This document shows positions 937 through 62,468 of a stretch of 64,000 bases of DNA, piece by piece. The first letter of the stretch is position 1, and each line of letters begins with the position of its first letter. Source of the stretch: Buxus sempervirens. Its lineage: Eukaryota; Streptophyta; Magnoliopsida; Buxales; Buxaceae. The stretch lies in assembly GCA_947561395.2 (NCBI GenBank), contig OX387190.1, positions 14,440,858 to 14,504,857 on the forward strand. The letters are read 5' to 3'. The position numbers and the translations under genes were made by a program. The notes beneath the pieces were generated by a model. That model was not told the DNA's origin and ran no database searches. It saw only the letters and a program-made list of their open reading frames with translations.

Positions 937-2424
937 TATTTTGGCTTGGTTTTACTTAAATTTTACAAATTTGGATAGAACCTGTACCCTGTCTTGAATC
1001 ATTCATAACTTCATCATATGAATGACTTTTTGAATGATTCCAGAGACATGTGATAGGTGAAGATGTCTAGTTTAATCTTATAAAATTTGAGCAATTTATA
1101 TGGAGCCAATTTTACAAAGCATTTGATTAAAGTTGATAAGTCAGATCAAGTCAAATTGTTGAACTTGTCACTTTGATTGAGCACCAAAGGCTTATTTTAA
1201 CTCCGATTTGAATGATTTCAATTCCTAAATCTTCCTTTATGGGTCTACTTTCAAATCCAATTAGTTCAAGAGGTTTCAAGTTAATTTGAGTTATGTGTGC
1301 TTTATTGACCCTGTACTGCTCAGTAGCAGATTACATAGTCAATCTGTGATCTTCTAAGCATGTTTAGGAGAGCATACAAGCTACAAATAGATGAAGTTTT
1401 GAGTAAGGCCTATTCCATTCGAAAGATGGTACCTCATACTTTATTCATACCAATTTTCAAGGATTTATATGAAGTCAATCTCCATGAATAGGTTTTCAAA
1501 GTTGGCTACTTACCGATTTTACTGTTTTACAACAGCAACTTTGAACAAGTTTATACTCTTTGATTTAAATCGGATTTGATTGAAATTTTCACTGAACCTT
1601 CTACTTCATATAAGCTTTCAAATTACTTTTGTTTCACTCAGTTTGAGTTTGAATTGAATGACTTAAGGTTGGTTGATTTTTCCAAGCTTAACTGGATTAA
1701 TTTTGAGTTAATTTTTCCAGATTTGTTTTAATTTGCTTTTCTTCTAGTTTTACCTTGATTTTTACTTGATCATGAAGTCCTAGAGGTGATATATCCATAG
1801 AGTGAGTCCAAGATCTATTGGACTACTCATATGGAGAAATCACACATATGTTTGTCTCTTTTCAAGTACTTTTGATTGATTTTTATTTGCAAGCAATTGT
1901 TAAGCATGAATAGCATATGGCAACCACCTTGTATGGATGAGTAGGGGTGCCTAACACCTTCCCCTACTCATAGCCTAACCCCTTACCCAATCTCTGGACA
2001 AGACCATATATTAGAGCTATTTTAGCTCTATTTTGTGTTCTTATGTTCATTTTGGTGTCCATTCACACCTTAACATGAATGGTGGCGACTTCAATATTTT
2101 GTGAATCCCGTGTGATGATTAAGAGATCACTTAGGTGATTTTTCCATGTCTCACACCCTCGCTTCACATTTTATGGTTACAGAGTAATTTTAGGTACTTT
2201 GATCTAGGTTTGGGGCTACACATATATAGAGGCTCTATCCTAGAGAAAAGTACAAGTTGCGATTGCTTAAATTAAAGAGAGAGTGGCTGAAAATTAAAGA
2301 AGAAATATATCTTGAGAGCTTGGATGCCTTTCAGAGGATGAGTGCACAATTTGGCAGAGTCTTCCCTTCTTTAGGAAATGTCTTAGATCTCCAAATTTTC
2401 AGCCCTTTGGAAGGAGGAGCCTTC

Positions 2425-2432
2425 TATTTATA
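2425..2432 (-). promoter_or_regulatory. TATA box of LTR E
   Basis: TATTTATA on the plus strand, TATAAATA on the minus strand, followed on that strand by agaaggctcc as in C. It lies about 190 bp downstream (minus sense) of the palindrome array. Confidence 0.5.
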
Positions 2433-2620
2433 GGTAAAGAGAGGGACAAGAGTGTCACAAGGGCATGGATAAAAATTTCTCTAGATCGATTAGAGCATGA
2501 ATTGGAAGGTATTATGGAGATTTTCGGGGGGTAGATTTGACAATCCAAGGCTCTTAGAGAAAGGTAATACCCATAAATAGGGCAGAGATCTCGAGATTTT
2601 TCATTTGGGTTGCTTTTTAT

Positions 2621-2894
2621 GTTGCACCGTACAATCAGAGCGGTGCACCATAAAAATTATGTTGCACCATACTTATATAATGGTGCACAAGAAAGATTAA
2701 GTGCACCGTGCAAGACGCATGATGGCCATTCTGTTATGCTCCCATGTGCCTCCTCTGATGTGGCGTAATAGCTGAAGCTTCTAGGCGTCACATCATCAAA
2801 AGCACTTTGCACCATGCTTCAAATACGGTGCTGCATCGTGAAATAAAGATGTTGCAATTACATTATGTTGCACCATTTTTGGAAAATGGTGCAC
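2621..2894. repeat. Array of GCACCAT/ATGGTGC palindromes in U3 of LTR E
   Basis: Four imperfect palindromes of about 27 bp: 2621-2648, 2661-2688, 2808-2834 and 2867-2894. Each has arms close to TTGCACCRT and AYGGTGCA around 8-9 variable central bases. A lone half-site lies at 2700. The array sits upstream of the E TATA box in the minus sense. Confidence 0.75.
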
Positions 2895-7965: not shown

Positions 7966-8112
7966 TTGTATCCGACAACTCAGGTCGGATACAAGCATAT
8001 CTCCTTATATCCGACAACTTATGTCGGATACAAGTAGACATTAATGTATCCGACGACATATGTCGGATACATATAGGTGCTCTTGTATCCGACCTGATAT
8101 GTCGGATACAAG
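7966..8112. repeat. Four TATCCGA/TCGGATA palindromes in U3 of LTR C
   Basis: Palindromes at 7966-7994, 8006-8033, 8044-8072 and 8083-8112. All have arms TATCCGAC and GTCGGATA (one GACC variant) and different 7-9 bp centres. Compared with the TATCCGG/CCGGATA word of element B, the inner base pair has changed on both arms. Confidence 0.85.
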
Positions 8113-9208: not shown

Positions 9209-9454
9209 GTATCCGACATTTAATACCGGATACACTTTCCCCTCTTCATATCCGGGCTCAAAGGCCGGATACAAGAAAATTTTCGCGCGACATTCGCGCC
9301 GATCGCCCGACAAATTCTCGGTGGCATTTAATTTTCAAATGATTATGTTTTGTATCCGGCATTGAAGACCGGATACAAAGGAACCTTAGAATATCCGGTC
9401 ATGAGGGCTGGATATGAAGGAGCCTTAGTGTATCCGGCCTGAGTGGCCGGATAC
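9209..9454. repeat. Five TATCCGG/CCGGATA palindromes upstream of the B TATA box
   Basis: Palindromes at 9209-9235, 9248-9273, 9351-9376, 9390-9416 and 9430-9454. Arms are TATCCGR/YCGGATA with 7-10 variable central bases. The last ends 12 bp before the TATA box. Confidence 0.85.
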
Positions 9455-9466
9455 GTTAAGTTTGTC

Positions 9467-9474
9467 TATAAATA
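9467..9474 (+). promoter_or_regulatory. TATA box of B 5' LTR
   Basis: gtcTATAAATAcaaacc immediately after the palindrome array. The duplicate in the 3' LTR is at 52987-52994. Confidence 0.7.
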
Positions 9475-10730: not shown

Positions 10731-10837
10731 GGTGATCCGGCAACTCAGGCCGGATCACCCATAGCCCCTGTGTATCCGGCCACTCTGGCCGGATCACTTG
10801 CAGACCATGTGTATCCGGCCTGAGTTACCGGATACAC
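10731..10837. repeat. Second palindrome array of B LTR, downstream of the promoter
   Basis: Palindromes at 10731-10759 (GTGATCCGG/CCGGATCAC), 10770-10797 and 10808-10837 (TGTGTATCCGG/CCGGATACACA). This is the same word as the U3 array but inside the transcribed part of the LTR. Confidence 0.8.
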
Positions 10838-11839: not shown

Positions 11840-11850
11840 TGGCGACTCCG
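11840..11850 (+). promoter_or_regulatory. PBS-like core inside U5 of B
   Basis: TGGCGACTCCG, sharing TGGCGACTCC with the true PBS, 45 bp before the LTR end. Equivalent cores occur in every Tat LTR end in the window. Confidence 0.5.
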
Positions 11851-18095: not shown

Positions 18096-18310
18096 ACCGT
18101 ATTTACATTACGGGCAGGGCATGCCCGTATTTTAAATACGGGCACGCTTCTAGAACGGAGACACGCGTCGCCGTACGGCGGAACACGCGTCCCGTACGGA
18201 CGAATCTGCGATAATTGCAAATATTCGTTTTTCGCCCGTATTTGAATTACGGGCAAGGCACGCCCGTACTTGAAGTACGGGCAAGGCACGCCCGTAGTTC
18301 AAATACGGGC
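18096..18310. repeat. CCCGTA/TACGGG palindrome array in U3 of A
   Basis: Three 21 bp palindromes at 18234-18254, 18262-18282 and 18290-18310 are spaced exactly 28 bp apart by the 7 bp spacer AAGGCAC. Others are at 18096-18114 and 18123-18143, and compact CCGTACGG dyads lie at 18169-18180 and 18190-18200. Arms are GCCCGTA/TACGGGC. The 7 central bases vary, and in two copies they extend the arm to 10 bp. Confidence 0.92.
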
Positions 18311-18324
18311 ACGGGATTTTTGCC

Positions 18325-19095: not shown

Positions 19096-19218
19096 AAGTG
19101 CAAAACAGGCGGCGTCCGTAAACTCAGGCCGGTCCAGCCTGGACCGTGTTTACTTCACGGGTAGAAGGGACCGGAATCCATTCACGGGCAGGCTGGACCG
19201 TAGAGCAAACACGGGCAA
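19096..19218. repeat. Second set of CCCGT/ACGGG words in A LTR
   Basis: Repeated gtccgtaaac, gaccgtgtttacttcacgggt, ttcacgggcag, gaccgtagagcaaacacgggc. These are imperfect inverted pairs using the same core word as U3, in the transcribed part of the LTR. The equivalent set in H is at 60792-60905. Confidence 0.6.
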
Positions 19219-19877
19219 AATGTAAAAATGAAGAAAAGTGTGATTTCTTGGTTCGGTTGGACCTGATCCGGTCTAAACCGGTTCGAACCGCTCCCTTAAA
19301 CCATTTGGGCTATCTTAAGCCTATTTTGGACTTTGGGCCTAGATAGGCCCATTAAGACCCCTTTTGGCCCACTTGTGGGGCCCATCTCAGACCGGCCCAT
19401 ACCAGGCCTGTTTTCAGTAAACAGGCCCAGGCCCTTTGACTCAGGCTAATGGGCCCATTCCAAGCCCACTAAGCCTAAACTAAAATTGTAAATACATAAA
19501 ATTTAACAAAATAGCCAAATGGGTTACCCAATAACCCAACTGGGCCCAAGGCCCAACCATGGCAATCCACGGGTCTTCCAACGGGACCCGGGTCCGACCC
19601 ACTTCACTTAAATAAAAAAGATAAAATCAAATAAAAAGGGACCCACACCTCCAACGGGCCCCGTCAGACCCAATAAGCAGCATGCTGGTCTAGGAAGGGT
19701 GAAATTGACTCAAAAACCAGGGAGACCCGAGGGACCCGTCAAACCGACGGGGCGGACCGGGGTGTCTTTAGGACTTCCCCGGATCGTAACCGAGGACTTA
19801 GCTAGAACTCTGAAAAGCCGCAGACCAGACTTAGACCCGATTAGGGCAAAACCGTGTCTGCCTGCACTCTCAGGCAG

Positions 19878-19975: not shown

Positions 19976-21269
19976 CACCCTCAACCCAGTCGGACCCTGG
20001 TTATCAAATGAGTCAACTTAGGAGGATATAAGCTAATTTAGGAAGTACTTCTTGCCCAACCTTAGTGGTTTATGGAACTTATGTAATTACATGATATTGG
20101 GGGATCCTGTCAAACGGACATGATAATCGCCTAAGGAAAGTGGTTTTTAACAGGGACCAATGTGACCCGCCCACTTACCTGGGGATCCACCCAAACATTG
20201 TATTACATACTGTTCTGTATTCTCACTATAAAAGCGACATTAAGGAACCCCTAATCAGCCCATTATCCGAGAATCACCCGAACAGACACAGCATTTGGCT
20301 CCACTGCACACACAAGCACCTCACTACACCGTGAATGAATATTTAATTGCATGGGGTGACAAGCACGAGGGAGTCTGCATGGGTGATCCGAACAGAATGA
20401 TCTCTGGATAACTGTGAATGCTCTTCTTAACCAAAACCTAGATCTCTCTAGCAGCCACCCTTCTTCAATCGAGAAACTTACTTTTGGGATGGTATTAGCC
20501 CTACGCTCCCGTGGCTTGCCGGGGAAAGCAGGGTAAACCCATCTCCCCAGGTTTCTAGATTCTTCAAGCGCCATTGGTTTCTTGCCATGGTACGCGAAGG
20601 GTCTAGTACTTGGCTCAGACCCTTGAAGGCAGGTGCCTTGGGCTGGGTATCCTTCCCCACCTATTACTTCTGATAAACCCTGATGAGAGCATGAACATGA
20701 ATGAACAAATAAGGGTAAAATTAATCTGGGGCATTAACCCCCACCTTTGTCGGTCTTAACCCTAATTTAAGGAAATTAACCCGATTCGATCCGTACATTC
20801 AAGTCGGTCTGGGTTCAGTCGAAAGCCGGCCAGATCAGACAGAAATGGGTCAGAACAGGGGCAGAAAAACCCTAGAGATAGGATTTCAGCCCACCTGCCG
20901 AATGGCAAATTTGTACCCTCCTTCTGGGTTCTCAACAACCCTAAAGGTGATTCTCTTTTCAGGTTTATTTTTGTAAATTTCGCCCTCGAAGGCAAGTTGT
21001 AAATATTGTATTCAGTCCGACACTAGGGGCAGATGAAAGGACAGATCAAAGAGCAGATGAAAGAACAGATGAAAGAAAAGGCCGGCTAAAACATTTAAAG
21101 GACATAACCCTTAAAACCCATAACTTGAGTGTTTGGATTTGATTTTTGATTGCATAAACTGCTTAGGCCTTGATTTAATTTTTGCATATCCTGTTGCATG
21201 CCTTAGACTAATTTAGAGTTTTTGGTGGAAAACCCTAAATTGACTTGGAATTTCAATCGGATAGTCGGC
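19976..21269 (+). other. Leader of element A between PBS and ORF1
   Basis: About 1.3 kb, no supported gene. Conserved with B at about 20165-20190 (ccacttacctggggat) and 20483-20660 (gggatggtattagcc ... gtggcttgccggggaaagca ... gggctgggtatcc). Candidate packaging or long-range pairing region; inference only. Confidence 0.6.
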
Positions 21270-22703
21270 ATGGCATCTTCATCCTCGACTGAGAGAGTTC
21301 GCTTCCCTAGGATAGAGAAGTGTGCCTTTGATACCCCTTGGATTCGTTCTTGGACAAGGCAATTGCAAGGAGATGAGCAAATTCAGTGGGAACAGAAATA
21401 CCACATGGGACAAACTCTGTCCCTGTTAAATGTGCCCATTAATTGGGACATGATTCAGGCGGCCCTACCTTTCTGGGATCCCCAAATTTCACTCTTTAGG
21501 TTTGCAACTAATGAGTTGACACCCACAATTGAGGAATTTGAACTATTCCTCCGATTCCGTGACCATGGAGAACCAGCTAGGCCAAGTCTCAAAGATAGCT
21601 ACAAGAATGAAGCTTGTACTTTCTTTGGCCTACCCAGAGGAGAATTCCAGACCTTAGGAGGTGACCAAGCATTCACGCGGGTCTCTAAAACCTTCCTTGC
21701 TGAAAAGATAAGGGACAAGAAGCAGGAAAGACCCCGTGTTTGGTGGGACACCTTCACCCTCGTGGTTCTGTCACAACTCTTCTTTCCTACTGGGGGAGAC
21801 ACCATTAATTTGGCCCTCATGGAAATTGTAGACCAACTCCAAGTGAAATTCCGAATTGCACCACTGATCCTTGCTCAGCTATATCATGCCTTGACCATGA
21901 CCAAGAACGGAACTAGGAGGTTTCAAGGATGCGCTCCTCTCCTACACATCTGGCTTCAAGATCACCTGATGGTTGCTGAACCTATCAGCCCACGTTATGG
22001 GTACGTCCGTGACAATGTCACATTGATGGCCCGAAGAGAGATTAGACCAGACTTACCCTCTAGAGAGGACTGGTTTGACCACTTTCTCCAACTGAAAGGA
22101 GAAACGGATATAAGATGGGGAGGCACATTTGACCAAACATATACTCCCGTCATAGCTTTCAGGAAAAGACATTGCCTAGCCTTGATAGGCTTAACCCATG
22201 CCATGCCATACTATCCGGTTCGAATTCTGAGACAGTTTGGGAAGTCTCAGGGAATACCAATCAAGGATGAGGCGGAAGGATTAACTGGCCCACTTACATG
22301 GGAATTGAAGAAAAAATTGGTGAAGGAATGGCAACACGTGCACATACTCCAAGAGGACATTTTCACTGCATCCGATGTTCGTAATTACGAACAATGGATT
22401 GCTCGAGAAACTGGCCTAGACAGCCCACCTCCTCTCCATATCGTCACCTCTGACGATGTCCCAGTTCCGCCCCCTGACACATACAGGGATAGGGTGGCCG
22501 AACTGCGGGAATCTCATTCTCGGATCCACCGTGCATACGTGGATTCCGAGCGTAAAAACAAGCAGGCCAATGAGGCCCTTCAACAGCAGCTTGACACCAT
22601 GCGCAGACGCGCAAAAGAGGACCGACGTCTGCGGAATAAACTTCTGCGTGCCTTGAAAAGGCGAGACGTGTCCTCTCATTTTGATGATGACCAACCTAGC
22701 TAG
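21270..22703 (+). CDS. ORF1 protein of element A (477 aa)
   Basis: Intact frame. I chose the Met at 21270 (MASSSSTERVRF) over an upstream Met at 21222 because element B has the same start context (13427). Ogre-type Tat elements are known for an extra ORF before gag whose role is not established. Residues 1-380 contain WDP-, FRFATNELTPTIEEFELFLR- and WGGTF-type motifs that remind me of a plant retroelement/mobile-domain-like family (DUF7745 type, from memory). Residues about 405-470 are rich in E, R, K, Q and likely coiled coil. No catalytic motif seen. It sits alone between a 1.3 kb leader and a 1.4 kb structured spacer, so it is probably translated from its own mRNA form. Confidence 0.9.
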   Translation: MASSSSTERVRFPRIEKCAFDTPWIRSWTRQLQGDEQIQWEQKYHMGQTLSLLNVPINWDMIQAALPFWDPQISLFRFATNELTPTIEEFELFLRFRDHGEPARPSLKDSYKNEACTFFGLPRGEFQTLGGDQAFTRVSKTFLAEKIRDKKQERPRVWWDTFTLVVLSQLFFPTGGDTINLALMEIVDQLQVKFRIAPLILAQLYHALTMTKNGTRRFQGCAPLLHIWLQDHLMVAEPISPRYGYVRDNVTLMARREIRPDLPSREDWFDHFLQLKGETDIRWGGTFDQTYTPVIAFRKRHCLALIGLTHAMPYYPVRILRQFGKSQGIPIKDEAEGLTGPLTWELKKKLVKEWQHVHILQEDIFTASDVRNYEQWIARETGLDSPPPLHIVTSDDVPVPPPDTYRDRVAELRESHSRIHRAYVDSERKNKQANEALQQQLDTMRRRAKEDRRLRNKLLRALKRRDVSSHFDDDQPS

Positions 22704-33662: not shown

Positions 33663-36083
33663 TGTAGACACCTGATTTTTGCACCCCTAAAATGGCAAAA
33701 AATGAAAAGTCAAACTAAAAGTCAAACCCTGAGGGGGTCAAAAATTGACTTTTTGATTCAAGTGAATTTGGCCATCAAACTTCATATCATTGAAAAGAAT
33801 ATGTCGACACGATTCCAACGCAACTGAATTTGCTGGAATCGGAGTCCGGATGAGAAAGATATGAGCTAGTCAAACTTTTGGAGGGCGAAAAGTTGACTTT
33901 TTGCTCAACCCTAATTCAACTGCCAAACTTGATCCCAATGGATAGGTGGTTCCGAGCTGATTCCAACGACACTAAGTTTGTTGAAATCGGACACCAGATA
34001 AAGAAGTTATGAGCAGTTGAAGTTTCAGAAAAAACTGCCCATGTGGCAAAAAGGCAGCAAAAATGGACTAAACCAATAAAATAAATAAGATAAAAGTGTT
34101 TAATAATATTTTAATAAAGAGAATCTCGTTTTCTAATAAAATAATCGGAAAAATCGGATAAAAATCCTGCAATAAGCCAAATTGAATAAAGGTTTGAAAT
34201 CCACACATTTTTAAAACGTGCGGGACCGTATTTACATTACGGGCAGGGCATGCCCGTATTTTAAATACGGGCACGCTTCTAGAACGGAGACACGCGTCGC
34301 CGTACGGCGGAACACGCGTCCCGTACGGACGAATCTGCGATAATTGCAAATATTCGTTTTTCGCCCGTATTTGAATTACGGGCAAGGCACGCCCGTACTT
34401 GAAGTACGGGCAAGGCACGCCCGTAGTTCAAATACGGGCACGGGATTTTTGCCTATAAATAGAGAGGCCACCCCCCTTCATTGGGACAAGCCCTCTCCTC
34501 TGGCCTTCCCCCCTTCCCTCTTGGTGCTTCCCACGGCCAAGTTCTGCTCATGTTGCAACCACCCTACCCAAGCCATCATAATGCCCAAATTGCCCCTACC
34601 TCATCAAAACCATGCATAAACTCTTCTTTTTCACCCTTTGAATATCAAGAGCCTACCAAACCCCTTCCCTATTCATCCCAACAAACCTTGGAGGACGCGG
34701 AAGCGCTGCCTAAATCTCTAGAGAGTCACTCCATCACCAAATCAAAGAAGCAGTAGTGTGGTAATTTTTGTATTTACCTCTTTTTAATGAATCATTTCAT
34801 TTAAGTTTTCTTTCATCTTATCACAATGCTACTAACTTATTTGTTGTCTGTTTTGAGTATCATGAAATGATGATAATGAAGAGTGGATTATTACAATAAA
34901 AAAAAAGGGGGAAGAAAGTATCTAAAGGATACTTTAATCCATAAATTTAATGATCCACTCCATTCTTTAAAATGACATTGTGATGTGAGAACCTTTATGA
35001 CATACCCTCTCCTCTCTTGATGAGGAATGTGGATTGGTTGAACAAGAACAAAAAAAAAAAAGAAAGGAGCACAAGACTCAAGGAACATGAGAAGAAGAAA
35101 GAAGAAATGGCCTTTTAGGCCAAATGAAGGAAATGAAGTCCCTAGAAGAACCTGAAATCTTTTATGAAGTTACCAGAACGCTTGAAGAAGCCACGGAGAT
35201 GATCCCAGAAAGAATCGGCAGCAAAAGTGCAAAACAGGCGGCGTCCGTAAACTCAGGCCGGTCCAGCCTGGACCGTGTTTACTTCACGGGTAGAAGGGAC
35301 CGGAATCCATTCACGGGCAGGCTGGACCGTAGAGCAAACACGGGCAAAATGTAAAAATGAAGAAAAGTGTGATTTCTTGGTTCGGTTGGACCTGATCCGG
35401 TCTAAACCGGTTCGAACCGCTCCCTTAAACCATTTGGGCTATCTTAAGCCTATTTTGGACTTTGGGCCTAGATAGGCCCATTAAGACCCCTTTTGGCCCA
35501 CTTGTGGGGCCCATCTCAGACCGGCCCATACCAGGCCTGTTTTCAGTAAACAGGCCCAGGCCCTTTGACTCAGGCTAATGGGCCCATTCCAAGCCCACTA
35601 AGCCTAAACTAAAATTGTAAATACATAAAATTTAACAAAATAGCCAAATGGGTTACCCAATAACCCAACTGGGCCCAAGGCCCAACCATGGCAATCCACG
35701 GGTCTTCCAACGGGACCCGGGTCCGACCCACTTCACTTAAATAAAAAAGATAAAATCAAATAAAAAGGGACCCACACCTCCAACGGGCCCCGTCAGACCC
35801 AATAAGCAGCATGCTGGTCTAGGAAGGGTGAAATTGACTCAAAAACCAGGGAGACCCGAGGGACCCGTCAAACCGACGGGGCAGACCGGGGTGTCTTTAG
35901 GACTTCCCCGGATCGTAACCGAGGACTTAGCTAGAACTCTGAAAAGCCGCAGACCAGACTTAGACCCGATTAGGGCAAAACCGTGTCTGCCTGCACTCTC
36001 AGGCAGTGGCGACTCTGAAAATCCCGAGGCACGCGCCAAAGGCACGCCCGGTGTGCGATCTAGGCCAGGTTTAGGTGCGCACA
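33663..36083 (+). mobile_element. 3' LTR of element A (2421 bp)
   Basis: Copy of 17534-19954 at an offset of 16129, with the palindrome array at 34225-34439, TATA box 34454-34461 and PBS-like core 36007-36017. Three transitions relative to the 5' LTR. Confidence 0.95.
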
Positions 36084-36936: not shown

Positions 36937-38493
36937 GTGACTGTCGTACATAACCAAAAATAAACCACTACTTAAAAATATGCATATAGTAAGGTGAGTA
37001 GGGATCGTTCCACCGAGAGTTTCTATGTCTTTTTATGCTTTAGAAAACAGAATTAAGAGGGGGGTTTTGTCACAATGAGATCAGAAAATAACAGATTACT
37101 AAAAAGACTTTAATAAATCAATCAAGAAAACAAACCTTGGTCTAAGTTAACATCCACCATCGGAATATCAAAGCTGATCATAGATGCTAGAATATATCAA
37201 TTCACACATTGAACATTCACCCTTGGAAATACTTTCCAAACTCTTTCAATTATAGTTAATCAGAAAACAAGCGATCTAATTAACCCTAACTACTAAACAA
37301 CCTCACACAAGCGGTAAAGATTTAATCCAGCAGTAGCTTTAGGGACTAGAAAGATTGATGAATCTAAACAATACAATCACAAGCGGCTGTATTTAATCTA
37401 GCAGAAAATTCTTCCTAAAGTCTAACAATTCCTGACGCAGCAAATCATTAAACCTCAGTTGCTTCACAGATTAGAGGGATCAAACAATTACGGATTTGAT
37501 ATCTAGCCTAGCAATAAATTGCAACGAATAATGAACTAGTAGGCCTCCTAGCAATTAGACGGGACAATCATGAGAATAAACATAGAAGAATATTCAATGC
37601 TCAAGTATAAAACTGAACAATTAAAACATTAAGATCTCACAGCTTTATTAATTCCGAGGTTTCAGCCTCCTTTGACCAAGAATAAAAGTTTAGCCACACA
37701 TGGCCATGGATCACAAAATAGAAGAAGAAAGGAAGAAGAGGAAGAGAAAGAGGACGTCCAGAACTCAGAAAAGCTCTCCAGCAAAAACTCCTCCTTCCTT
37801 CACATTTCACTCCTTTATAGAAATCACATAAACTTGCCCAAAATTCCCTTGAAAAGAAAATAGGAACTTTCCTTCCAAGACTCCTTGGAAGAGAGAACTT
37901 CCTTTCCTTGTATATCCACGACCTAGAAGTCCAAAAACGACCTAATCTTCTTAATTAGAAACCCCTTAAAGTCCTCCTAAAAACTAGAAGAAGATCCCCA
38001 ATAAAAAGGAAACAAATCCTCAAAGTTCGGAATTTTATAACAGGTTTTAATACTTGATCGTTCGAACGTTCATCGAACGCGGGTCGAACGTTCAGTTCAA
38101 AAATTTGTTTCCTCTTCTCTTGTTCGAACGTTCATCGAATGGCCAGCGAACGCTGCTCACAATTTCTCTATTTTTCACCAACGTTCGAACATCAATCGAA
38201 CTTTCTGCGAACCCTGCTCTCGGGTATCGCTGCAGATCACCAATGTTCGAACGTCAATCGAACGGCCAGCGAACTTTGATCATATCTTCTACAATTTGAC
38301 TCCGATTGTTACGCTGTTTGAATCGTGACTTCTATAATCACCAAGAGTATCTCAGTTTAGCTTCATTTTGCCCACATGCTGCCAATTGTAACCTAAATAA
38401 AAATATGAGCATAATCAGTATATTTAGGCACAAAAATAAATTCAAAAGATTAAACATTAGTAGAGAAAAATATAACAAATTAAGTTCTTATCA
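36937..38493 (-). mobile_element. Insertion J, 1557 bp, unclassified, TSD GCCAGTG
   Basis: Flanked by GCCAGTG (36930-36936 and 38494-38500) and exactly fills the gap in gag. The minus strand begins TGATAAGAACTTAATTTG and ends near gtacgacagtcac. I see no LTR pair, no clear terminal inverted repeat beyond TGA/TCA, and no coding domain. A repeated TTCGAACG-type word array lies at 38054-38275. Minus-strand orientation is suggested by TATA-like sequences after that array (about 38034 and 37815). Non-autonomous; family unknown to me. Confidence 0.75.
38054..38275. repeat. TTCGAACGTTC-ATCGAACG word array in insertion J
   Basis: Four blocks near 38058, 38122, 38181 and 38245, each with (g)ttcgaacgt(t)c followed after 3-4 bases by tcgaacg and then a gcgaac word. 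TTCGAA is itself palindromic. Confidence 0.75.
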
Positions 38494-41925: not shown

Positions 41926-42280
41926 CGCGTCGAGCGCTGGTAGCGTCGTGGTGCGATCGGGGTAGACGGCTGGAAGCGAACTCAAGTCCCGCTCAAATCC
42001 AAAAGACTCAGTTAAGGACGCGCTGCCAGCGCGCTGCTAGCGGGAGGGAACGCGGCATGTGCACAGCTGATTTGTAGATTCTTCAATCTTGCTCTGCACT
42101 ACCAGCGGCGTGTCGGCGTCGCCTTACGAAGCCGGTCCGCGTGCTTTACTTTCAAAGTGCTATTTCACTTATGCGCTACCAGCGGAGTGGTAGCGGCGTT
42201 GTTCCTTGCAAGTGCATTTACGAAATGTTCTTTCTTTAGAAATCTTTACATTTCCTTGAGCTACCAGCGGCGTGGTAGCT
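41926..42280. repeat. GCTACC/GGTAGC palindromes upstream of the promoter of the copia-like LTR
   Basis: Clear palindromes at 42175-42194 and 42260-42279 (GCTACCAGCGG/GTGGTAGC), with weaker relatives near 41936, 42020 and 42100. In the minus sense the array precedes a TATA-like CTTTAAATAG at 41902-41911. Confidence 0.7.
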
Positions 42281-43411: not shown

Positions 43412-45453
43412 ATCCCTGTGCGCACCCGTTTCCGCGTCGCAGCACTGGGTAAAAATGGGGATTTGGAGTCGCCACCGCCTGATGGGGTGCAAGCGGACAC
43501 TTGGGTGCCTAAGTTTTTCTACTAGGCTTGGTCTGCGGCTTGAGATTCTAAGTAGGTTCTCGGTTGTGGTCTGGGGAAGTCCGTGGACACCCCAGTCCAC
43601 CCCGTCAAGTGACGGGTCCCATAGGATTCCCTGGTTTGAGTCAACTCAGTTGGTCTCTCACTCACCCGATTCCTATTCCAGCATGTAATTTGATTAAGTC
43701 TGGCGGGACCGCCAAAGTGGTGTGGGTCCCTTTACTTGATTTTATCTTCTTAATTAAAGTGATGTGGGTCTGATTGGGTGGGCCCCGTTGGAAGGCCCAC
43801 TGGATCCCTTGGTGGGCCAAGCGTGGCTCACATGTTCCGTTGGTGGGCCTTAGACTAGCCTGAGAGGCCCTCTAGGCTTTGGTTCAATTGAATTGATTTT
43901 ACTTTAGGGTTTAAGTTGGATTATTTAAATGGATTTCATGCCAAAACGTGGGCCGGGATTGCTTTGTGGGCCCCACAGTTGTTTGCCAAGTGATTTTGAT
44001 TATCTTGATTAATTATACCAAAATGGGCCAGGTATTGGGCTTGGGGCCCTTTACCTAGGCTTGGGCTTGAAAGCCCAAGACTTCCTGAGTTAGGGTTCTG
44101 AAACCCTAAGCTGGTTGGGTTCATGGGCTTAGTGGGCCCGATAGGCTCAGCCCGTGGTCTCGGCCAAACCACATCCTACTTTAAGCATGCATGGCCCAAC
44201 TAGGGCTTGGGTGGGCCTCAAGTGGTCTGGCCCACTCATTCGGTTAAATTTATCTTGATTTATCAAAAAAAGTCTGTCGAGCTTGGTGGGCCCCGTTGGA
44301 AGGCCCACCGGGAATCGAGTTGGACCGGGTTGGTCCATGGCCCATCTTGGGTTTCCGGGTCACCCGGAAACCCTTCTGGTTCACTCAAATTGATCAAACA
44401 CATCAAGAAAATCCCACAAGATCAGCAAAATGGCAAAAATGACTTCTGACAGCGTAGCCGGCCTGAGATGCCGGTTACACACAAGGTTCTGTGTATCCGG
44501 CATCTCTAGCCGGCTACACATGAGCTTCTGTTGATCCGGCCTGAGTTGCTGGATCAACCTACAGAAGCTATTTTTCGGGTTTTTCACATTGAGGTTGGAT
44601 TCCTGGGCCTCTAGGGTGTTCTGGGATTGCGGCAGGGACCTGAGTGTCCCTGTGGGAGTCTTCACCCTTCACATATTAATGAAATAACCATGCAAACGCA
44701 ACTCAATTAATACAACCTAGCATGCATCTAAGCCATTACAAACACGTGTATTTTTACGGAGTTTTGCACATGAAATAAAGTGTGTGTGTGTTAGCATGTG
44801 TTAGAAGGGAAAGAGAAGGGGGTTTAATAAAGGGGTACAATGGATGGATCATGCTATGGGGAACATGCTCCCCTTGATAAACGGAGGAGCAAGCAACATC
44901 ATGCAAGTACAATAGTAACCTTATAATATACTAAAATCAAGCCTAAAGAGTCCCCTTTCTCCCATCGATCCACCCGGGATATCCATCTTGCCTTATGAGG
45001 CCAATACCCTTATAACGGTGTAAAGCGAATGACAGATATAAGGGGTGAAAGCATGAATCTAGTGCTAATAGCAAGTATACAATATGCATAAAATAAGATG
45101 CACTTCAAATCATGCTATATTCATATATGTGAAACACCAAGGTACAAGGAAGCTCACCTTGGGTTTAAAACCCTGGGGCGAAACGTGTGGAGCCTCCTTA
45201 GGGTGAAGGAAGCAGCTGGAGTAGCACCTCCTCCCTCCAACAGCAGCAAGAAACCTCCTCCTTTCAATGTTCAAGTGAAGAAGAAGGAGATGGAGGAGAG
45301 TCGGGAGGTGTTGAGGTGGTTCTAGGTGGTGCTTGAGGGGTCTTGGAAGGCAATGGAGGGTTGAATGGGGGTTTTCGGAGCAGGAGTCGTGGGGGAGAAG
45401 GGGTGGAAATCGAGCAAAATGGAACCAACCCCCGGAAATGAGCTGCTGTTCTC

Positions 45454-45470: not shown

Positions 45471-45722
45471 ATGTATCCGGCAACTCAGGCCGGATACACT
45501 AAGGCTCCTTCATATCCGACCTTCATGACCGGATACACTAAGGTTCCTTTGTATCCGGTCTTCAATGCCGGATACAAAACATAATCATTTGAAAATTAAA
45601 TGCCACCGCGAATTTGTCGAGCGATCGGCGCGAATCTCGCGCGAAAATCTTCTTGTATCCGGTCTTCAAGTCCGGTTATGAAGGGGGGCTAGTGTACCCG
45701 GTATATGTGACCGGATACAATT
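45471..45722. repeat. TATCCGG/CCGGATA palindrome array of the antisense solo LTR
   Basis: Five palindromes in the same order and spacing as in the B LTR but with different arm and centre substitutions (for example gtacccggtatatgtgaccggatac). The second array is at 44455-44557. Confidence 0.8.
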
Positions 45723-52039: not shown

Positions 52040-55000
52040 TGTAAGCACCTCATTTTTGCGCTCCCAAAAGGCCAGAAATGCAAAACTCGGCTAAAAAGTC
52101 AAACCCTGAGGGGTGAAAAGTTGACCTTTTGATTAGATAAAATTTAGCCACCTTGCTTTATCCCAATGGATAGAGAATCCCGACATGAGTCCAGCGCAAC
52201 TGGGTTTGCAGGAATCGGAGTCCGGATGAGGGTTCTGCGGGCGGTCAAACTTAAGGAAGAGCCGAGAGTTGACTTTTCCTCAAATTCCGTGCCAAATACC
52301 TTCGTCTATACCATGGGATAAAGAATCTCGACACGGTTCCAACGCAACTGAGTTTGCTGGAATCGGGGTCCGGATGAAGGTTCTAAGGGCAATCAAACTT
52401 AAGGGAAGGCCAAAAGTTGACTTTTCCTCGAACCCCGTGCCAAATGCTTAGCCCTATGTCATTAAATAGAAGGCTCCGATACGAGTTCAACGCAATTGAG
52501 TTTGCTCAAATCGGAGTTCAGATGAGTGGGATATGAGCTGTCAAGGTTTCCGAGCAGCAAAGCCGGAAGTTACACACGTGGCGCAGGAACTGCCCACGTG
52601 GTGGCCAACGCAGCAAAATATCTCAGGGACTAAATCTTAAATATCAAAAATTCGTACGGGTCGATCCGTAGATATCCAAAAGTGTCAAATCGGTCAAGTC
52701 GAAGGGCAAATCCGTAATTTTTCGATTTGTATCCGGCATTTAATACCGGATACACTTGCCTCTCTTCATATCCGGGCTCAAAGGCCGGATACAAGAAGAT
52801 TTTCGCGCGAGATTCGCGCCAATCGCCCGACAAATTCGCGGTGGCATTTAATTTTCAAATGATTATGTTTTGTATCCGACATTGAAGACCGGATACAAAG
52901 GAACCTTAGTGTATCCGGTCATGAGGGCCGGATATGAAGGAGCCTTAGTGTATCCGGTCTGAGTGGCCGGATACGTTAAGTTTGTCTATAAATACAAACC
53001 AGCAGCTTATTTCCGGGGGTTGGTGATTTTTTCTGCTCTTGAGCTCTCTTCTCTCACCCATTCTCATTCGAACTCACCCTCCCTCTACTCTCTTTACCCC
53101 CTACCACCTTGCCCTACCACCTAGAACACATTGACCCTTGCTTCCCTCTCCTTCTTTCTCACTTTCTGGAGTAAGCCAAAGGAGTCAAGCTGCTGTTGTG
53201 AAGAAGTGGGTGCTCCAAGGAGGTCTCCAGCTGCTGTACCACCCCCAAGGAGGTGTCTCCATCTTGCACAAACACCCAAGAACCACCAGGTATCACTTCT
53301 TGGCCCTTTTTACTTTACATATATGAAAATGGGGACTTTCCGAGTATGTTCACATGTGTGTTCTTCCTCATAGTGGTATATGCATGTTGATCTCTCCTTT
53401 CCATGCATTTTCTTCCATTTTGGCACCATGGAGACCTCCAAAGGTAGGGGAGTCTCCATGCACGACCCCGTGAGAGGAGGAGGGTTTTATTGCCTTACTC
53501 AAATGCCATGCAAGTCACCATCGTAGGCCATTTATGGGTCACTTTAAAAAGGGGAGCATTTTCCCTCTCTTCATCCAATGTACCCCCAAGTAAACCCCCC
53601 ATTACCCTCCATGCTTCTTGCTTTCTTGCTCTTTTCCTTCATTTTTTATATATATGATTTTCGTGGGTGTCTCTTGCTTGCTATCCCAAGCCGTAAATCT
53701 TTGTAGGCTGCATATGTTAGGTTATAGGACCCCTTTTCTTCTTGTTTTCTTCCATGCACGTAGTCTTTGACCATGTTTCTTTTTTTGTTTTGGCTTGTTG
53801 TTATTGTCAAGCATAGACGCATGAGCTCCCCTCCTCCTTTATTCCCCTTTTTTAGGCTGTACTTCTCGTCCCTTTCAGCATGCTTAGACATTATAGTGAC
53901 TGCTGCTCCTCCTGGGACAGCAGGTTTTGTTTCTCGCCCTGGTTTTATTGATAGTGTATATGTGTATAGCTTAGACTTATTGTCGGAAGCCGTGATCCAT
54001 GCAAGCATGCCCCCACCAAAATCACCGAGTCCCTTTTACTGTTGACTAGTGATTGAGAAGGAAGTGGGGAGGGGCAATAGTCCCATGCCCCCGTTTACTT
54101 TGCTGAAAAAATCCGAAAAGGGAAGCCAAAGGAGGCTTCCCCCAAACCTGAGCCAATGTGGGCCCTCACAGAGGCCCACATGACCTGTATAAGCCCCTAG
54201 GAACCCCCTGGAAACATCCCGAATGTCAAAAAGCCCAAAAAAGTTCATTCCAGGGTGATCCGACAACTCAGGCCGGATCACCTGTGGCCTGGGTGTATCT
54301 GGCCACTCAGGCCGGATCACCCATAGCCCCTGTGTATCCGGCCACTCTGGCCGGATCACTTGCAGACCATGTGTATCCGACCTGAGTTATCGAATACACA
54401 CAGAATTGTGGTTTTTTGTATATTTTGATCCTTGGCCGAATTTCATGATGCTATGAACCAAACCAATTGAACCAATAGGGTTTCCGGGCCACCCGGAAAC
54501 CCAACTTGGGACATGGACTGCCGGTCCGACTCGGAACACTCGTGGGCCTTCCAACGGGGCCCACCAAGCCCAACGAACCCTAAAGCATGCAATTAAACAA
54601 GCTAAGTAAAAATGAACAAATTGAATTGGGCGGGCCAAACCCAATGCGGCCCACCTGAGCCTGGTTATGTGTAATGAGGGTATGAACTGCATGGTTTGGC
54701 CGAGACCAAGGGCTAGGGCCTGTCGGGCCCGCCAAAGCCCGCCAACTGAACCAAGTTAGGGTGCAAACCCTAAACTCCAAAGAATTGGGCTTTCAAGCCC
54801 CAAAACCTGGATCACGGGCCCCAAGCCCAGTGACCAGCCCTTCTCTGGCAAATTAAAAAGATAACATAAAATTACTTGGCCACCATGTGGGCCCACAAAC
54901 CGATCCGGCCCAACTTTGTATGGAAAAATACTTAAACCCCAACTGAAACAACTAAGTAAAATCAACTCATTAACCAAAGCCCACAGGGCCCCTTAGGGCT

Positions 55001-57737: not shown

Positions 57738-60054
57738 TGTGAGACACGGGAAAAAATCACCGGAATGATCATCCCTCCGTCAGCACACGGGGATCGACGT
57801 AAAAATTGGGAGAGTCGCCACCATTCAGAATTTTGGAGGTGTGAATGGACACCAAAAGATTCAATCAATAAGCAAAAAGTGCTAAAAGGCAAATTCTAGA
57901 GTAAAAATAACTCTACTTGAAAATCAAATCCAGAGATGGGTAAGGGGATTAGATTATGAACGGGGGAAGGTGTTAGGTACCCCATTTCACCCACACAAGG
58001 TGGTTGCCAAGTGTTTGTTCATGCAAAAAGTAAGAAAGCTTGCTAAAAATCATTAAAAACCTTGAAAAAGGACCAATGTATGATATCTTCACATGAAGAT
58101 CCAAATGGATTTCAGATCCTCTTTTATGTCAATATCATTTCTGGAATATCAACAATAAATGGAAATCAAAGCAAAAGTTGCACAAAACCAAGTTGAGTTC
58201 AATCCGGAGAATTCGGTAAAAGTAATGCCATTAGTCTTGAAATCATTCAAATCCAATTTTAAATTGAATCAAACCAAATCCATTTGAAAGATTATGGTAA
58301 ATAGGAGACTCATGCAAAATTTCAAGTAAATCCGGTTGAAATCCTACGAGTTATGCTCCTTTAAAATTGCTGCTGGGGAAAATCAAAAGTGACAAGTATG
58401 CAAGTTTGGAAAATCACCTAGAAAAATCCACTCTATAAAAATCCAAGAAATTTGGTGTGATTGAAGTCTGTATGGCCATCTTTCGAACAAAACTAGCCTC
58501 ATACAAAAATTCATTCGGATGTGCCTTCGGTGGTCTCCCGAACAGGCCCCGAAGATCACAAATTTACCCAGAAAAGTACTGATGAGCAGTTCTGAGTAAA
58601 TCTGTTACCAATAATACAAATGGAGTAAAAAATTATTAAACCAACTGCATTTGAAAAAAGACTCATAGAGGAGTGCCCAGAAACAAAAATCACTCGAATC
58701 GGACTTAAAACGAACACATGGCGCTCCGTCGAAGTGACAAGTTCTGTATTTAAACCTGAACTGTCCAATCAACTTCGACAGAGAGGTGTCAAAAATCCGC
58801 TTGATAGAAATTAATGAAATTTGGTAGGAATAACCTAGACAGCCTCACCTTTCCCATGGTTCTAGAATCACTCCAAAATTCATCCAGACGATGAAGTTAT
58901 GAGTGTCCGAAGTCGGGGTACAGTTGCTGTCTGGTTAGGCCTTATTTGGAGAAAACCAACTCAAAACTGTGATAAAGTGTGTGTGATTCGTGAAAGATGA
59001 ATCCAAATCTTTTAAAAACCTTTTAAAGACATTCCAGAATTGATTGAGGCCATTTATTTCAGATTTATCACAATAAATGTAATAAACCCAAAATATGAGC
59101 CTATCCCGCCAAAACGGGTGCAATGTATATGTAAGTGAAAATCATTCAAGAACAATATAACAACATTGCATGCATTCTCATTCATTTAAAATAGGGTTCT
59201 AAAAGCAACCTAGGGTTCCGTTCCATTATCGTTTCCCTTTGTTCTCTCTCCCCGTTAAACACGGTTCTTCAAGATAATCATGGGGTACTTTGAATATGAA
59301 ACGGGCTTCAAAGATTCAAAAGGCTTTATTCTAAATAGGTTCTAGTACTAGGGTCAATCCCCAGTCTAGTTTCTCCTAGATCCCGCCTTCACATTTTACG
59401 GCTAGGGGGAGTCTTGAGATATTTTGAGCCGGGGAAGGATTTTCATACACACAAAAAGGCCTTATTCTACAGAAAGGTAGAAGAAGAGATCTAGATCTAG
59501 AAATGTAAAATAGAAAGTAAAGAAGAGGTTTGAGGCTTACCTGGGGTTCTGGAAGCAATCCGGCGGCGGTTCCCTTCTTCACTCGAAGCTCTTGGATCTC
59601 CAACTTATTGGCCATTTGCTTGAGGAGGAGCCTCCTATTTATAGGAAAAGGTTAAGGTTAGGGTTGGTGAGAATGGTAGACACAACATAATGTCTATAGC
59701 CCACCAACCTTAACCCTAGGGCTGTTTCCTAGATTTCCCCTCATTTAACGAGGGACATGATGGTAAAAAGTGAAATCTCTCGGAAAACCCTAATTTTGAG
59801 CAAAACTTATGTATCCGACATATCAGGCCGGATACACAAGGGTCTTAAGGTATCCGGTATATAATACCGGATACACTAAAGCTTTCTTGTATCCGGTATT
59901 GTCCATCGGATACAAAGAGAGGTACTTGTATGCGGCCTGAGTTGCCGGATACAAGTAAAAAACACTTTTTCTCAAATTTTGTGCTGGCTTTCAAGGAGAT
60001 AATGATTTTTGATGATTATTGATCATTTTTGCTGTGCAATTTGGGGTGTATACA
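57738..60054 (-). mobile_element. LTR G: antisense C-family LTR, probably a 3' LTR
   Basis: The plus strand starts TGTGAGACACGG and ends GGGGTGTATACA. Inverted it aligns with C: same start, TATCCGG palindromes (59811-59957), TATA box (59636-59643 minus) and leader. The PBS-like core is at 57812-57820. A polypurine tract (inverted) directly abuts its right edge, so G looks like the 3' LTR of a minus-strand element whose interior lies to the right. No target duplication can be matched. Confidence 0.65.
59811..59957. repeat. TATCCGG/CCGGATA palindromes of LTR G
   Basis: Four palindromes: TATCCGAcatatcaggCCGGATA, then TATCCGG/CCGGATA around tatataata, TATCCGG/TCGGATA, and a TATGCGG/CCGGATA variant. 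Located upstream (minus sense) of the G TATA box. Confidence 0.8.
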
Positions 60055-60078: not shown

Positions 60079-62468
60079 TGTGCGCACTTAAAGCTAGATC
60101 GCACACGGGGTGCACGTTGGTTCGTGCGTGCCTCGGGACTTTCAGAGTCGCCACTGCCTGAGAGGTGCAGGCAGACACGGTGTTTGCCCTATCCGGGTCT
60201 AAGTCTGGTCTGCGGCTTTTCAGAGTTCTAGCTAAGTCCTCGGTTACGTCCGGGGAAGCCCTAAGACACCCCGGCCCGCCCCGTCGGTTTGACGGGTCCC
60301 TTGGGTCTCCCTGGTTTTTGAGTCAAGTTCACCCTTCCTAGGCCAGCATGCTGCTTTATTTGGTCTGGTGGGACCCTCTGAAGGTGTGGGTCCCTTTTAT
60401 TTGGATTTTATCTTTTTTATTTATCTAAGTGAAATGGGTCGGACTCGGGTCCCATTGGAAGACCCGTGGGCTGCCATGGTTGGGCCTTAGGCTCAGTAGG
60501 GTTATTGGGTAACCCTTTTTGGTTATTTAAATTTTATTTATTTACACTTTTATTTGGGCTTGGATTTGGCCCATTAGCCAAGGGTCAAGGGGCCTGGACC
60601 TATTTATTGAAAACAAGCCTGGTATAGGCCGGTCAAAAGTGGGCCCCTCAAATGGGCTCAAGGTGCCTTGGTGGGCCTATTTAGGTCCACAGTCCGCAAA
60701 TGGGCTTAAAATGGCCCAAAATGTCGAAAAGGTCGGTTCAGGCCGGGTTAAATCCAACCGGGCCAAAAATTACATTTTTTAAGTTATATTTACACGGGCC
60801 CGTGTTTGTTATACGGGCTACCATTGCCCGTAAATGAAATCCGGTTCAAGCTTGCCCGTGAAGCAAATACGGGCATGCTTGAACCGTTCTGAGTTTACGG
60901 GCTCAACCAAATTTGCATATTTGGTGCCGATTCAGCTTGGGATCAGTTTGATTAGTTTTCTAGGGCTTTCAACAACCTCCGTCAGACTTCCAGCATCCCC
61001 GTGATTCTCCATTCCCTCCATTTGGCTTAAAAAAGGCCATCTTTCTCCTCTTTTGCATTTTCCAAGCAAGTATAGCTTCCTTTTAACCATTTGTGATCAT
61101 TGCTAAGAAGGGAATAAGAGGGAGATTACAGGGAATATCAGATATTTACAGAAGTTCCAGGATTGTAACCAAATTAGGTAGGGTATTATTCTTTTGATAA
61201 CCCTTGATTATTCTCTCCTCCTTTTCATGGAAATGACCACTTTGGATCAAGTTACTCATCGCATACAGCAGCCAAAATATGTTAGAAACGACATAATGAA
61301 AATAAAATAAAAAGAAAGTAAGTGAAGAAGAAAGAAAAAGTAACTAAAACTTACTTAATTCATTGAGCATACTTACAATGTAATTTCTAATTGATCTTGA
61401 TGATTCCTCGAAGTCCGAGTGAATTCGACAGCGCTTCCGCGTCCCCTTGGGTTTCCAAATTTGGTTTTGAAAGGGCCTGGTTGGGTTTCCTATGTTCAAA
61501 TGATAATGAAACGGGGTTTAGACAGAGTTTGGGCAATGCAAGGGCATTTCGGGGATTTTTGGAATTAGGAATTGGAGGTGGCAGAACTTGGGCAGGGTTT
61601 CGGCTCTGTAAAACACACAGACGGAGAGGGGAGAGGCCAAGAGGAAGGCTTGTCCGAAATGAGGGGGGTCCTCTCTATTTATAGGCAAAAAGGGGCGTGC
61701 CCATATTTTAAGTACAGGCGTGCGTGCTCGTACTTCAAGTACGGGAGTGCCTTGCCCGTAATTCAAATACGGGCGAAAAACGCACATGTGCAAATCTCTC
61801 AGAATTGGCCGTACGGGACGCGTATCCCGCCGTACAGCGACGCGTGTCTTCTTCCAGAAGCTTGCCTGTATTTGAAATACGGGCATGCCCTGCCCGTAAT
61901 TGAAACACGGTCCAACACGTTTTTAAAATGTTTGGATTTCAAACCTTTATTCAATTTGGTTTTTTGTAAGATTTCGTTCGATTTCTTTGATTATTTTATT
62001 GAAAAGCGAGATTCCTTTTATTAAAATATTATTAAACACATTTATCTTATTTATTTTATTGGTTTATTCCATTTTTTGCTGCTTTCTTGCCACATGGGCA
62101 GTTTTTTTGAAACTTCAACTGCTCACAACTTCTTCATCCGGTGTCTGATTTTAGCAAATTTGGTGTTGTTGGAATCGGCTCGGAATCACCTATCCACTGG
62201 GATCAAGTTTGGTAGCTGAATTGGGGTCAAGCAAAAAGTCAACTTTTCGCTCCCCAAAAGTTTGACCAACTCATAACTTTCTCATTCGGACTCTGATTCC
62301 AGCAAACTCAATTGCGTTGAAACCGTATCGAAATGCTCTTTTTAATGAGATGAAGTTTGATGGTCAAATTCACTTGAATCAAAAGTCAATTTTTTGGCCC
62401 CCTCAGGGTTTGACTTTGAAATTTTCATTTTCATCATTTTTTTTGGGTGCAAAAATCAGGTGCTAACA
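60079..62468 (-). mobile_element. Solo LTR H of the A family, 2390 bp, antisense, TSD GCTGC
   Basis: The plus strand starts TGTGCGCAC and ends GGTGCTAACA; GCTGC at 60074-60078 and 62469-62473. It is related along its length to the A LTR (same word palindromes at 61699-61911 and 60792-60905, TATA box 61676-61683, PBS-like core 60143-60153) but clearly diverged. It interrupts the interior of the G element. Confidence 0.88.
61699..61911. repeat. CCCGTA/TACGGG palindromes of solo LTR H
   Basis: Same layout as in A: three 28 bp-spaced palindromes next to the TATA box, compact CGTACGG dyads, then two more palindromes. The TATA-proximal copies are decayed (for example cccatattttaagtacagg). Confidence 0.8.

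What the first reader, a model, noticed from the sequence alone, without database searches (positions are those of the whole stretch)
2621..2894. Different LTR families carry different palindromic words at the same place
E uses GCACCAT/ATGGTGC, A and H use CCCGTA/TACGGG, B, C, G, the antisense solo LTR and M use TATCCGG/CCGGATA, and the copia-like LTR uses GCTACC/GGTAGC. In each case the array precedes a TATA-like box in the sense of the element. Convergent architecture with a family-specific word suggests either a selected promoter device or a rapidly changing identity tag, for example to change factor use or escape small-RNA silencing.
Basis: partly seen in the sequence, partly recalled or inferred. 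Interest (0 to 1): 0.88.

Follow-up and report, generated by a model that had tools for sequence, protein, structure and literature searches.

The report
Palindrome arrays beside retrotransposon promoter boxes
Several kinds of jumping gene in this plant genome carry rows of short DNA palindromes in front of their promoter, and although the palindromes are spelled differently, most of those sampled share one hidden frame, CCG, eleven bases, CGG, which suggests that one kind of paired DNA-binding protein reads them.

Summary
Dyad arrays lie upstream of 9 of 9 testable LTR-type TATA boxes in the window; same-word arrays are absent from 10 shuffles. Three words occur genome-wide as 20,489, 11,283 and 3,730 exact dyads, against 0, 0 and 3 for reversed patterns. 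TATCCGG dyads end a fixed 10-11 bases before CTATAAA in 99 of 100 listed places.

The interpretation needs changing. The main words are not unrelated: TATCCGG, CCCGTA, AACCGC, CCGAAA, TGTCCGC and the E word fit one frame, CCG-N11-CGG (in E mostly CCA/TGG, as CpG decay would give). Words differ between homologous LTRs, one word is shared by LTRs that align nowhere else, and it recurs in a second array downstream in the LTR. Exceptions: a GCGC-rich class (8 of 26 classified Ogre pieces) and two LTR-like inserts.

Best explanation: TATA-proximal sites for a dimeric CCG-reading DNA-binding factor, more likely of the host than of the element. Binding is inferred, not shown. Family-specific palindromes upstream of TATA are published for Sireviruses (Ty1/copia); here they lie in Ogre-type (Ty3/gypsy) LTRs with fixed spacing: a new variant of a known kind.

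The parts
2623..2893 (-). E array: four 25-bp dyads TGCACC(G/A)-N11-(C/T)GGTGC, upstream of the TATA box at 2424-2433 in a minus-strand LTR piece (about 2214-3471 by eye; the 3' limit is uncertain)
2424..2433 (-). TATA box of the E LTR
7968..8109 (+). C array: four dyads GTATCCGA-N9-TCGGATAC (one starts with A), period 39; TATA at 8275
9209..9454 (+). B 5' LTR promoter array (five TATCCG dyads, one with a decayed half); CTATAAATA at 9466
10733..10835 (+). B second array, downstream in the same LTR, same word, gap 9, period 39
18121..18312 (+). A 5' LTR promoter array, GCCCGTA-N7-TACGGGC, local period 28; TATA at 18324
19110..19220 (+). A second array, degenerate CCGT/ACGG dyads (read by eye)
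34250..34441 (+). A 3' LTR promoter array; TATA at 34453
44454..44556 (-). M second array (TATCCG variants)
45473..45718 (-). M promoter array (antisense solo LTR, similarity 43461-46194); TATA at 45453 (-)
52729..52974 (+). B 3' LTR (G) promoter array; TATA at 52986
54256..54358 (+). B 3' LTR second array
59811..59957 (-). Inverted C-type LTR array, period 39; TATA at 59635 (-)
60852..60876 (-). H second array (one clean CCG-N11-CGG site among degenerate ones)
61739..61898 (-). H promoter array, CCCGTA, partly decayed (one site passes the strict filter, 61752-61776); TATA at 61675 (-)
62983..63046 (-). Two TATCCGG dyads in what looks like the 3' internal region of a C-type element, outside an LTR (by likeness to L009)
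38060..38263 (-). GTTCGA-N7-TCGAAC array in an LTR-like insert (36936-38494 by eye, CCAGTG at both sides); does not fit CCG-N11-CGG
42174..42280 (-). Two GCTACCA-N6-TGGTAGC dyads in an insert (about 41205-42423) in B; do not fit CCG-N11-CGG
21222..22703 (+). Extra ORF of element A with plant mobile domain/DUF7745; a possible but untested element-encoded reader of the dyads

Best explanation
The arrays are promoter-proximal binding platforms acting as double-stranded DNA. Each unit is a 21-25 bp dyad with a core CCG-N11-CGG, read by a protein dimer that contacts two CCG triplets at a fixed distance. Bases just outside and just inside the triplets (the 'word') tune which member of the protein family binds, or how well. 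Typically two to five units sit upstream of TATA (the last one 12-18 bp before it in the scored Ogre-type LTRs, 23 in one row with a deletion; about 165-190 bp in the C/E-type LTRs of the window) and are proposed to set activity of the LTR promoter; a second array with the same word lies 0.8-1.3 kb downstream in the long LTRs. Words turn over by spread of tandem units and by exchange of array cassettes between LTRs. Shown: geometry, position, fixed spacing, conservation of words, variable interior, word difference between homologous LTRs, sharing of one word by otherwise unalignable LTRs. Inferred: protein binding, dimerisation, effect on transcription, exchange of cassettes, identity of the factor. 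A host transcription factor is thought more likely than an element protein; the LOB-domain family (zinc finger plus dimerising coiled coil) is a candidate, its CCG-type sites being recalled and not tested.
For: Fixed half-site gap: in held sequence TATCCGG occurs with gap 9 in 63 sites and gap 7 in 4 (the N7 places were sought on purpose), no other gap from 1 to 30; CCCGTA only with gap 7 (21 sites). Of the genome places listed, 50 of 50 have gap 9, 50 of 50 gap 7 and 49 of 50 gap 7 for AACCGCA, with 5-11 allowed. Common core: exact CCG-N11-CGG 59 in 32 Ogre LTR pieces against shuffle mean 2.6, maximum 9 of 200; 22 in six 10-kb genome pieces against mean 1.3, maximum 4 of 100 (the 10 of these with palindromic flanks lie in three of the six pieces). 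The gap spectrum peaks at 11; non-LTR parts of the window have 2 such sites, none with palindromic flanks. Fixed distance to TATA: 12-13 bp in 12 of 13 TATCCG rows scored and 15 bp in four CCCGTA rows, two of them one LTR pair; genome-wide 2,353 against 17 control matches, gap 10 or 11 in 99 of 100 listed, with 3-32 allowed (all listed are on one contig and some are LTR pairs). Word columns 0.890, inner 0.568, other 0.781 mean pairwise identity in 14 aligned LTR pieces (columns were labelled by word match, a mild bias). One-sided arm changes show no preference for those keeping a G-U pair in sense RNA (16 against 25). Same word in two separated arrays of one LTR.
Against: 8 of the 26 classified Ogre pieces belong to a GCGC-rich class without CCG-N11-CGG (and 2 of these 8, L059 and L066, score no strong dyad at all); 6 of 32 pieces show none of these words. 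The GTTCGA and GCTACC inserts do not fit. For the word TATCCGG alone the frame is not unique, since CCGG half-sites also give CGG-N9-CCG (31 in the pieces against 52 for CCG-N11-CGG), and this word dominates the sample; other words add fewer sites, CCGAAA only one exact one with palindromic flanks. Inner bases are more complementary than expected (2.13 against 1.77 of 4 pairs, p = 0.0004, relatedness uncontrolled), which a hairpin would also give. No binding, expression or methylation data.
Confidence: 0.57

Rival explanations
1. RNA or single-strand hairpins: the dyads matter because they fold in transcripts, either serving the element (packaging, dimerisation) or feeding small-RNA silencing, as argued for maize Sireviruses.
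For: Array segments fold strongly: best 110-nt window below -40 kcal/mol in 22 of 25, against 11 of 96 random tiles and 4 of 12 LTR-body tiles. Pairs 8/18 and 9/17 covary both in the Ogre-type sites and in the second set of sites (L001-L019 and the window's C-type LTRs), and pair 12/14 in the Ogre set (sites unoriented, relatedness uncontrolled); inner complementarity above permutation. An excess of small RNAs maps to Sirevirus palindrome clusters (PMC10760457 passages).
Against: Loop length is fixed at 9 or 7 although loops tolerate change; no G-U bias; fixed distance to TATA; the U3 array is upstream of the presumed start site, so it would be in the RNA only at the 3' end; inner pairs 10/16 and 11/15 do not covary.
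Confidence: 0.2
2. Element-encoded reader: the plant-mobile-domain ORF of the Ogre-type elements binds its own family's word and keeps copies active, as VANC proteins do for VANDAL transposons; words and protein coevolve.
For: PMD ORFs lie in both A and B; the domain is in 57% of Ogre elements surveyed (PMC6317226 passage); a long C-terminal helix (residues 437-483 confident) could be a dimerising coiled coil; arrays lie in several non-coding parts; MAIN/MAIL1 PMD proteins are linked to a promoter motif (PMC7156037 passages); VANC targets are tandem, fast-evolving motifs (PMC5735166 passages).
Against: The PMD ORFs of A and B do not look faster-evolving than gag-pol (77% nucleotide identity against 68-78%; 64% protein identity over residues 252-493). 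TATCCG is shared with C-type LTRs, for which a PMD ORF was neither sought nor shown. VANC motifs are in one orientation, not dyads. The fold prediction failed (pLDDT 37) and no solved relative was found.
Confidence: 0.12
3. Neutral by-product: tandem duplication and template switching make palindromes in LTRs, and they persist without function.
For: Periods of 39 and 28 bp and similar inner sequences within one array point to tandem duplication.
Against: Words are more conserved than flanks while the inner bases change; the same core geometry recurs with different words; fixed distance to TATA.
Confidence: 0.08

Closest known systems
Palindromic repeated motifs (RM) of Sirevirus LTRs, Ty1/copia (Bousios et al. 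2010, PMC2829016; section 9 and passages read; the 2016 maize follow-up known only as cited in PMC10760457)
   Same: Family-specific palindromes in many copies just upstream of TATA, with a CGG/CCG core and extra copies in a non-coding internal part. The Citrus motif of that paper, AATCCGG-CTWR-CCGGATT, has nearly the half-site seen here (TATCCGG/CCGGATA) at a shorter gap.
   Different: Ours lie in Ogre-type Ty3/gypsy and other LTRs. Triplet order is CCG...CGG at a fixed N11, whereas most published motifs are CGG...CCG with short, varying gaps (a few, such as OPIE-2, PREM-2 and Citrus, contain both orders). Words are seen to differ between alignable LTRs. That paper calls the motif absent from classic (Ty1/copia) elements, and a maize survey saw no clear structural peak in Ty3 elements (PMC10760457 passage), though it also says that palindromic repeat arrays in cis-regulatory regions are known from several TE families.
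VANC target arrays of VANDAL transposons (PMC5735166, passages; PMC10398659, abstract and outline)
   Same: Short motifs in tandem arrays in non-coding parts, changing quickly between related elements
   Different: Motifs in one orientation, DNA transposons, proven element-encoded binder
Tandem enhancer boxes of plant copia LTRs such as Tnt1 (named in PMC3601003, passages; details recalled)
   Same: Repeated cis-boxes in U3
   Different: Not known to me as dyads of fixed spacing or as a word series across families
CACTA subterminal repeats (recalled; a possible case at L035 4426-4596, word TAGCGG)
   Same: Short motifs in both orientations in clusters
   Different: Transposase-related sites at DNA-transposon ends, not at an LTR promoter

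Membership tests
Ogre lineage (elements A and B) | Additional RNase H between RNase H and integrase | tested here: met
   Order RT, RNase H, RVT_3, rve in A (one ORF) and in B (two adjacent ORFs); definition from passages of PMC6317226. Retand shares this feature.
Ogre lineage (elements A and B) | Extra ORF with plant mobile domain | tested here: met
   PF10536 in the ORFs 21222-22703 and 13477-14142; typical of, but not confined to, Ogre (57% of Ogre elements in that survey)
Ogre lineage (elements A and B) | Primer-binding site type | not tested
   The stretch after the LTR was seen but not compared with tRNAs
Sirevirus RM arrays | Host element is a Sirevirus (Ty1/copia) | tested here: not met
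   A and B are Ty3/gypsy Ogre-type; C- and E-type elements were not classified
Sirevirus RM arrays | Palindromic repeated motif upstream of TATA | tested here: met
Sirevirus RM arrays | CGG-CCG core (CGG on the left) | tested here: not met
   The order common to the words is CCG-N11-CGG; only words with CCGG contain both orders
Sirevirus RM arrays | Eight or more copies per element | tested here: inconclusive
   One B LTR has five promoter sites plus three in the second array; A has four clear ones plus degenerate ones
VANC-type target arrays | Motifs in the same orientation | tested here: not met
   Half-sites are inverted with respect to each other
VANC-type target arrays | Bound by an element-encoded anti-silencing protein | not testable with these tools
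   No binding data; the PMD ORF is only a candidate

The most novel reading that the evidence does not exclude
A large share of this genome's LTR promoters, across unrelated retrotransposon lineages, is built round one dimer site, CCG-N11-CGG. Its flanking and inner bases act as changeable address words read by diverging members of one protein family, with word change driven by a contest over activation or silencing and cassettes passed between elements.
Probability: 0.25. Interest if true: 0.85.

Novelty: new variant of a known kind. Interest (0 to 1): 0.62.

Why it matters
If the frame holds, tens of thousands of predicted sites (about 35,500 exact dyads of three words), with natural variants around the triplets, become a ready-made test of which plant factor drives or represses Ogre-type retrotransposons and of why LTR promoters diverge so fast. 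It also extends a feature described for Sireviruses to Ty3/gypsy elements and gives a simple sequence rule for finding LTR promoters.

Tried and rejected
Unrelated words by convergence: dropped after the gap spectrum showed a shared CCG-N11-CGG. Pure RNA hairpin: weakened by fixed gap and lack of G-U bias. PMD fold: poor model, not searched further; homologue search gave one hit. A central CTTGAAG/TTCAA motif is frequent in A-type promoter dyads, but not in the second arrays or in C-type dyads, so it is not used as a common feature. LTR retrotransposon targeting of palindromes (PMC6911290 passages) concerns insertion sites and is weak; not the same thing. CpG retention was higher in words (126 of 138) than elsewhere (125 of 151), but the difference is small and not relied on. 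Word classes of the 32 pieces were assigned by reading them, not by a classifier: TATCCG 15, GCGC 8, CCCGTA 2, AACCG 1, none of these 6 (L041, L044, L046, L052, L062, L068; L041 and L062 have another dyad, GGCATGCATGG...CCATGCATGCC, read by eye).

Not obtained: genome counts for the E word, for TGTCCGCA, for ACCG-N11-CGGT and ACCG-N12-CGGT, and for the mirror order TATA-then-word.

Full report
What was checked. Element A (LTRs 17532-19954 and 33661-36083, 99.9% identical) lies inside element B (LTRs 8511-11884 and 52040-55433, 95.8%). Both have RT, RNase H, a second RNase H and integrase, and an ORF with a plant mobile domain, as described for Ogre (PMC6317226 passages). C-type and E LTR pieces, an antisense solo LTR (M) and an antisense A-like LTR (H) are also present; C and E were not classified.

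The arrays are real. Of 10 boxes CTATAAATA/CTATTTATAG in the window, 9 have an array upstream and the tenth lies too near the window edge. Same-word arrays give 44 (overlapping) rows in the window and none in 10 shuffles. In a word-independent count, 22 of 41 promoter segments hold two or more strong dyads in 321 bp (470 bp for E), against 7 of 186 random-genome tiles, 0 of 98 element-internal tiles and 2 of 19 LTR-body tiles; by summed dyad score 35 of 41 segments exceed their own 100 shuffles at p of 0.05 or less. The 41 are nine window segments (two LTR pairs among them) and 32 pieces cut 340-660 bp downstream of a conserved Ogre LTR block that occurs 2,124 + 2,154 times in the genome. The 32 were chosen by hand from the listed hits, all on contig C1, skipping close neighbours and, without a rule, some others. 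Read by eye, 26 of the 32 carry a recognised promoter word class (22 of them reach a TATA box) and six do not.

Scale. GTATCCGG-N-CCGGATAC dyads number 20,489 and GCCCGTA-N-TACGGGC 11,283, with 0 for the reversed patterns; AACCGCA-N-TGCGGTT number 3,730 against 3. The allowed gap was 5 to 11 bases, yet 50 of 50, 50 of 50 and 49 of 50 listed places have gap 9, 7 and 7. The 7-base TATCCGG arms at gap 7 occur at only 6 places, against 1 in the control.

A shared frame. Written from the CCG triplet, these gaps are the same: TATCCGG-N9-CCGGATA, CCCGTA-N7-TACGGG, AACCGCA-N7-TGCGGTT, the CCGAAA word of L036 (one clean site), the TGTCCGC word of L035 and the E dyads are all CCG-N11-CGG, or with CCA or TGG on one or both sides in three of E's four dyads, as CpG decay would give. 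In the 32 LTR pieces there are 59 exact CCG-N11-CGG sites against a shuffle mean of 2.6; in six 10-kb genome pieces at round-number places there are 22 against 1.3. The gap spectrum peaks at 11, with a secondary peak at 24 that the 39-bp array period explains; the non-LTR parts of the window show no peak. TATCCGG by itself would also fit CGG-N9-CCG, so the other words carry much of the argument for this particular frame. 18 of the 32 pieces have two or more exact sites and the other 14 have none. Eight of those 14 belong instead to a GCGC-rich class (read; two of the eight score no strong dyad), so the frame is common but not universal. Two LTR-like inserts (GTTCGA, GCTACC) also do not fit.

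Position. The last TATCCG word ends 12-13 bp before CTATAAA in 12 of 13 rows scored (the other, 23, has a deletion), CCCGTA 15 bp in four, AACCG 16, CCGAAA 18 and L035 22 (the eight GCGC pieces, L047 and H were not scorable with the words used). Genome-wide, CCGGATAC-N-CTATAAA occurs 2,353 times against 17 in the reversed control, and the gap is 10 or 11 in 99 of 100 listed places, although 3 to 32 was allowed. The C- and E-type arrays of the window lie about 165-190 bp away. B/G and M have a second array of the same word downstream in the LTR, H one clean such site, A a degenerate one, and a C-type element has two dyads in its 3' internal part.

Change of words. A and B LTRs align at both ends (70% and 69%) but have different words. 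TATCCG and CCGAAA LTRs align over 653 bp at 70%, CCCGTA and CCGAAA over 312 bp at 74%, GCGC and TATCCG over 108 bp at 80%. E aligns upstream of its array at 75-77% with L003 and the L005-L008 locus, which carry TATCCG. L037, weakly like C (68% over 284 bp), has CCCGTA and GTGACCG dyads. Conversely the only alignments between the B and C LTRs lie in their arrays, apart from 20 bases that both cuts contain. So arrays look like cassettes that are replaced and exchanged; the exchange is inferred.

DNA or RNA. In 14 aligned TATCCG promoters, word columns are the best conserved (0.890), inner columns the least (0.568) and the rest 0.781; length changes inside dyads are one 10-base insertion in one row and one unit largely deleted in another. 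Pairs 8/18 and 9/17 covary in two sets of sites and inner complementarity is modestly above permutation; both could reflect shared descent, a symmetric homodimer site, or pairing. One-sided changes do not favour G-U pairs. As RNA the arrays fold strongly (22 of 25 below -40 kcal/mol), so a small-RNA consequence is possible whatever their primary role.

Reading. A dimeric DNA-binding factor reading two CCG triplets at fixed distance explains the fixed gap, fixed TATA distance, dyad symmetry and free inner bases. LOB-domain proteins combine a zinc finger with a dimerising coiled coil (PMC7178066 passages); that they like CCG-type sites is recalled. The plant-mobile-domain protein of the elements is a rival reader, weakly supported.

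Known background. Sirevirus LTRs carry family-specific palindromic motifs with a CGG-CCG core upstream of TATA (PMC2829016, section 9 read). A maize survey saw structural peaks in copia LTRs but no obvious one in Ty3 elements, and notes that palindromic cis-regulatory arrays are known from several TE families (PMC10760457 passages). In ten paper searches no title or abstract start listed described such arrays in Ogre or a CCG-N11-CGG rule; the library is partial, and I saw passages or sections of eight papers and the abstract and outline of one. Expression and methylation are unknown here.

Noticed in passing
window 15199-17142: Large tandem repeats (111-, 144- and 176-bp units) inside element B upstream of the A insertion.
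   Followed up: no
L035 4426-4596: TAGCGGCGGTAATTACCGCCGCTA-type dyads, possibly the subterminal region of a CACTA transposon (recalled likeness).
   Followed up: no
window 36936-38494: LTR-like insert (minus strand; called copia-like on impression only) in B's gag region, CCAGTG at both sides, with four GTTCGA units about 62 bp apart upstream of a TATA-like box near 37816 (read by eye).
   Followed up: partly
L042, L043, L051, L054, L057, L059, L066, L072: GCGC-rich stretches, mostly with one dyad (for example about 15-bp arms in L043), before TATA in Ogre LTRs, one of which aligns with TATCCG-type LTRs over 108 bp; a second type of promoter palindrome.
   Followed up: partly
window 24048-31703: A single open reading frame of 2551 aa covering gag and pol of element A, whose LTRs are 99.9% identical, which points to a recent insertion.
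   Followed up: no
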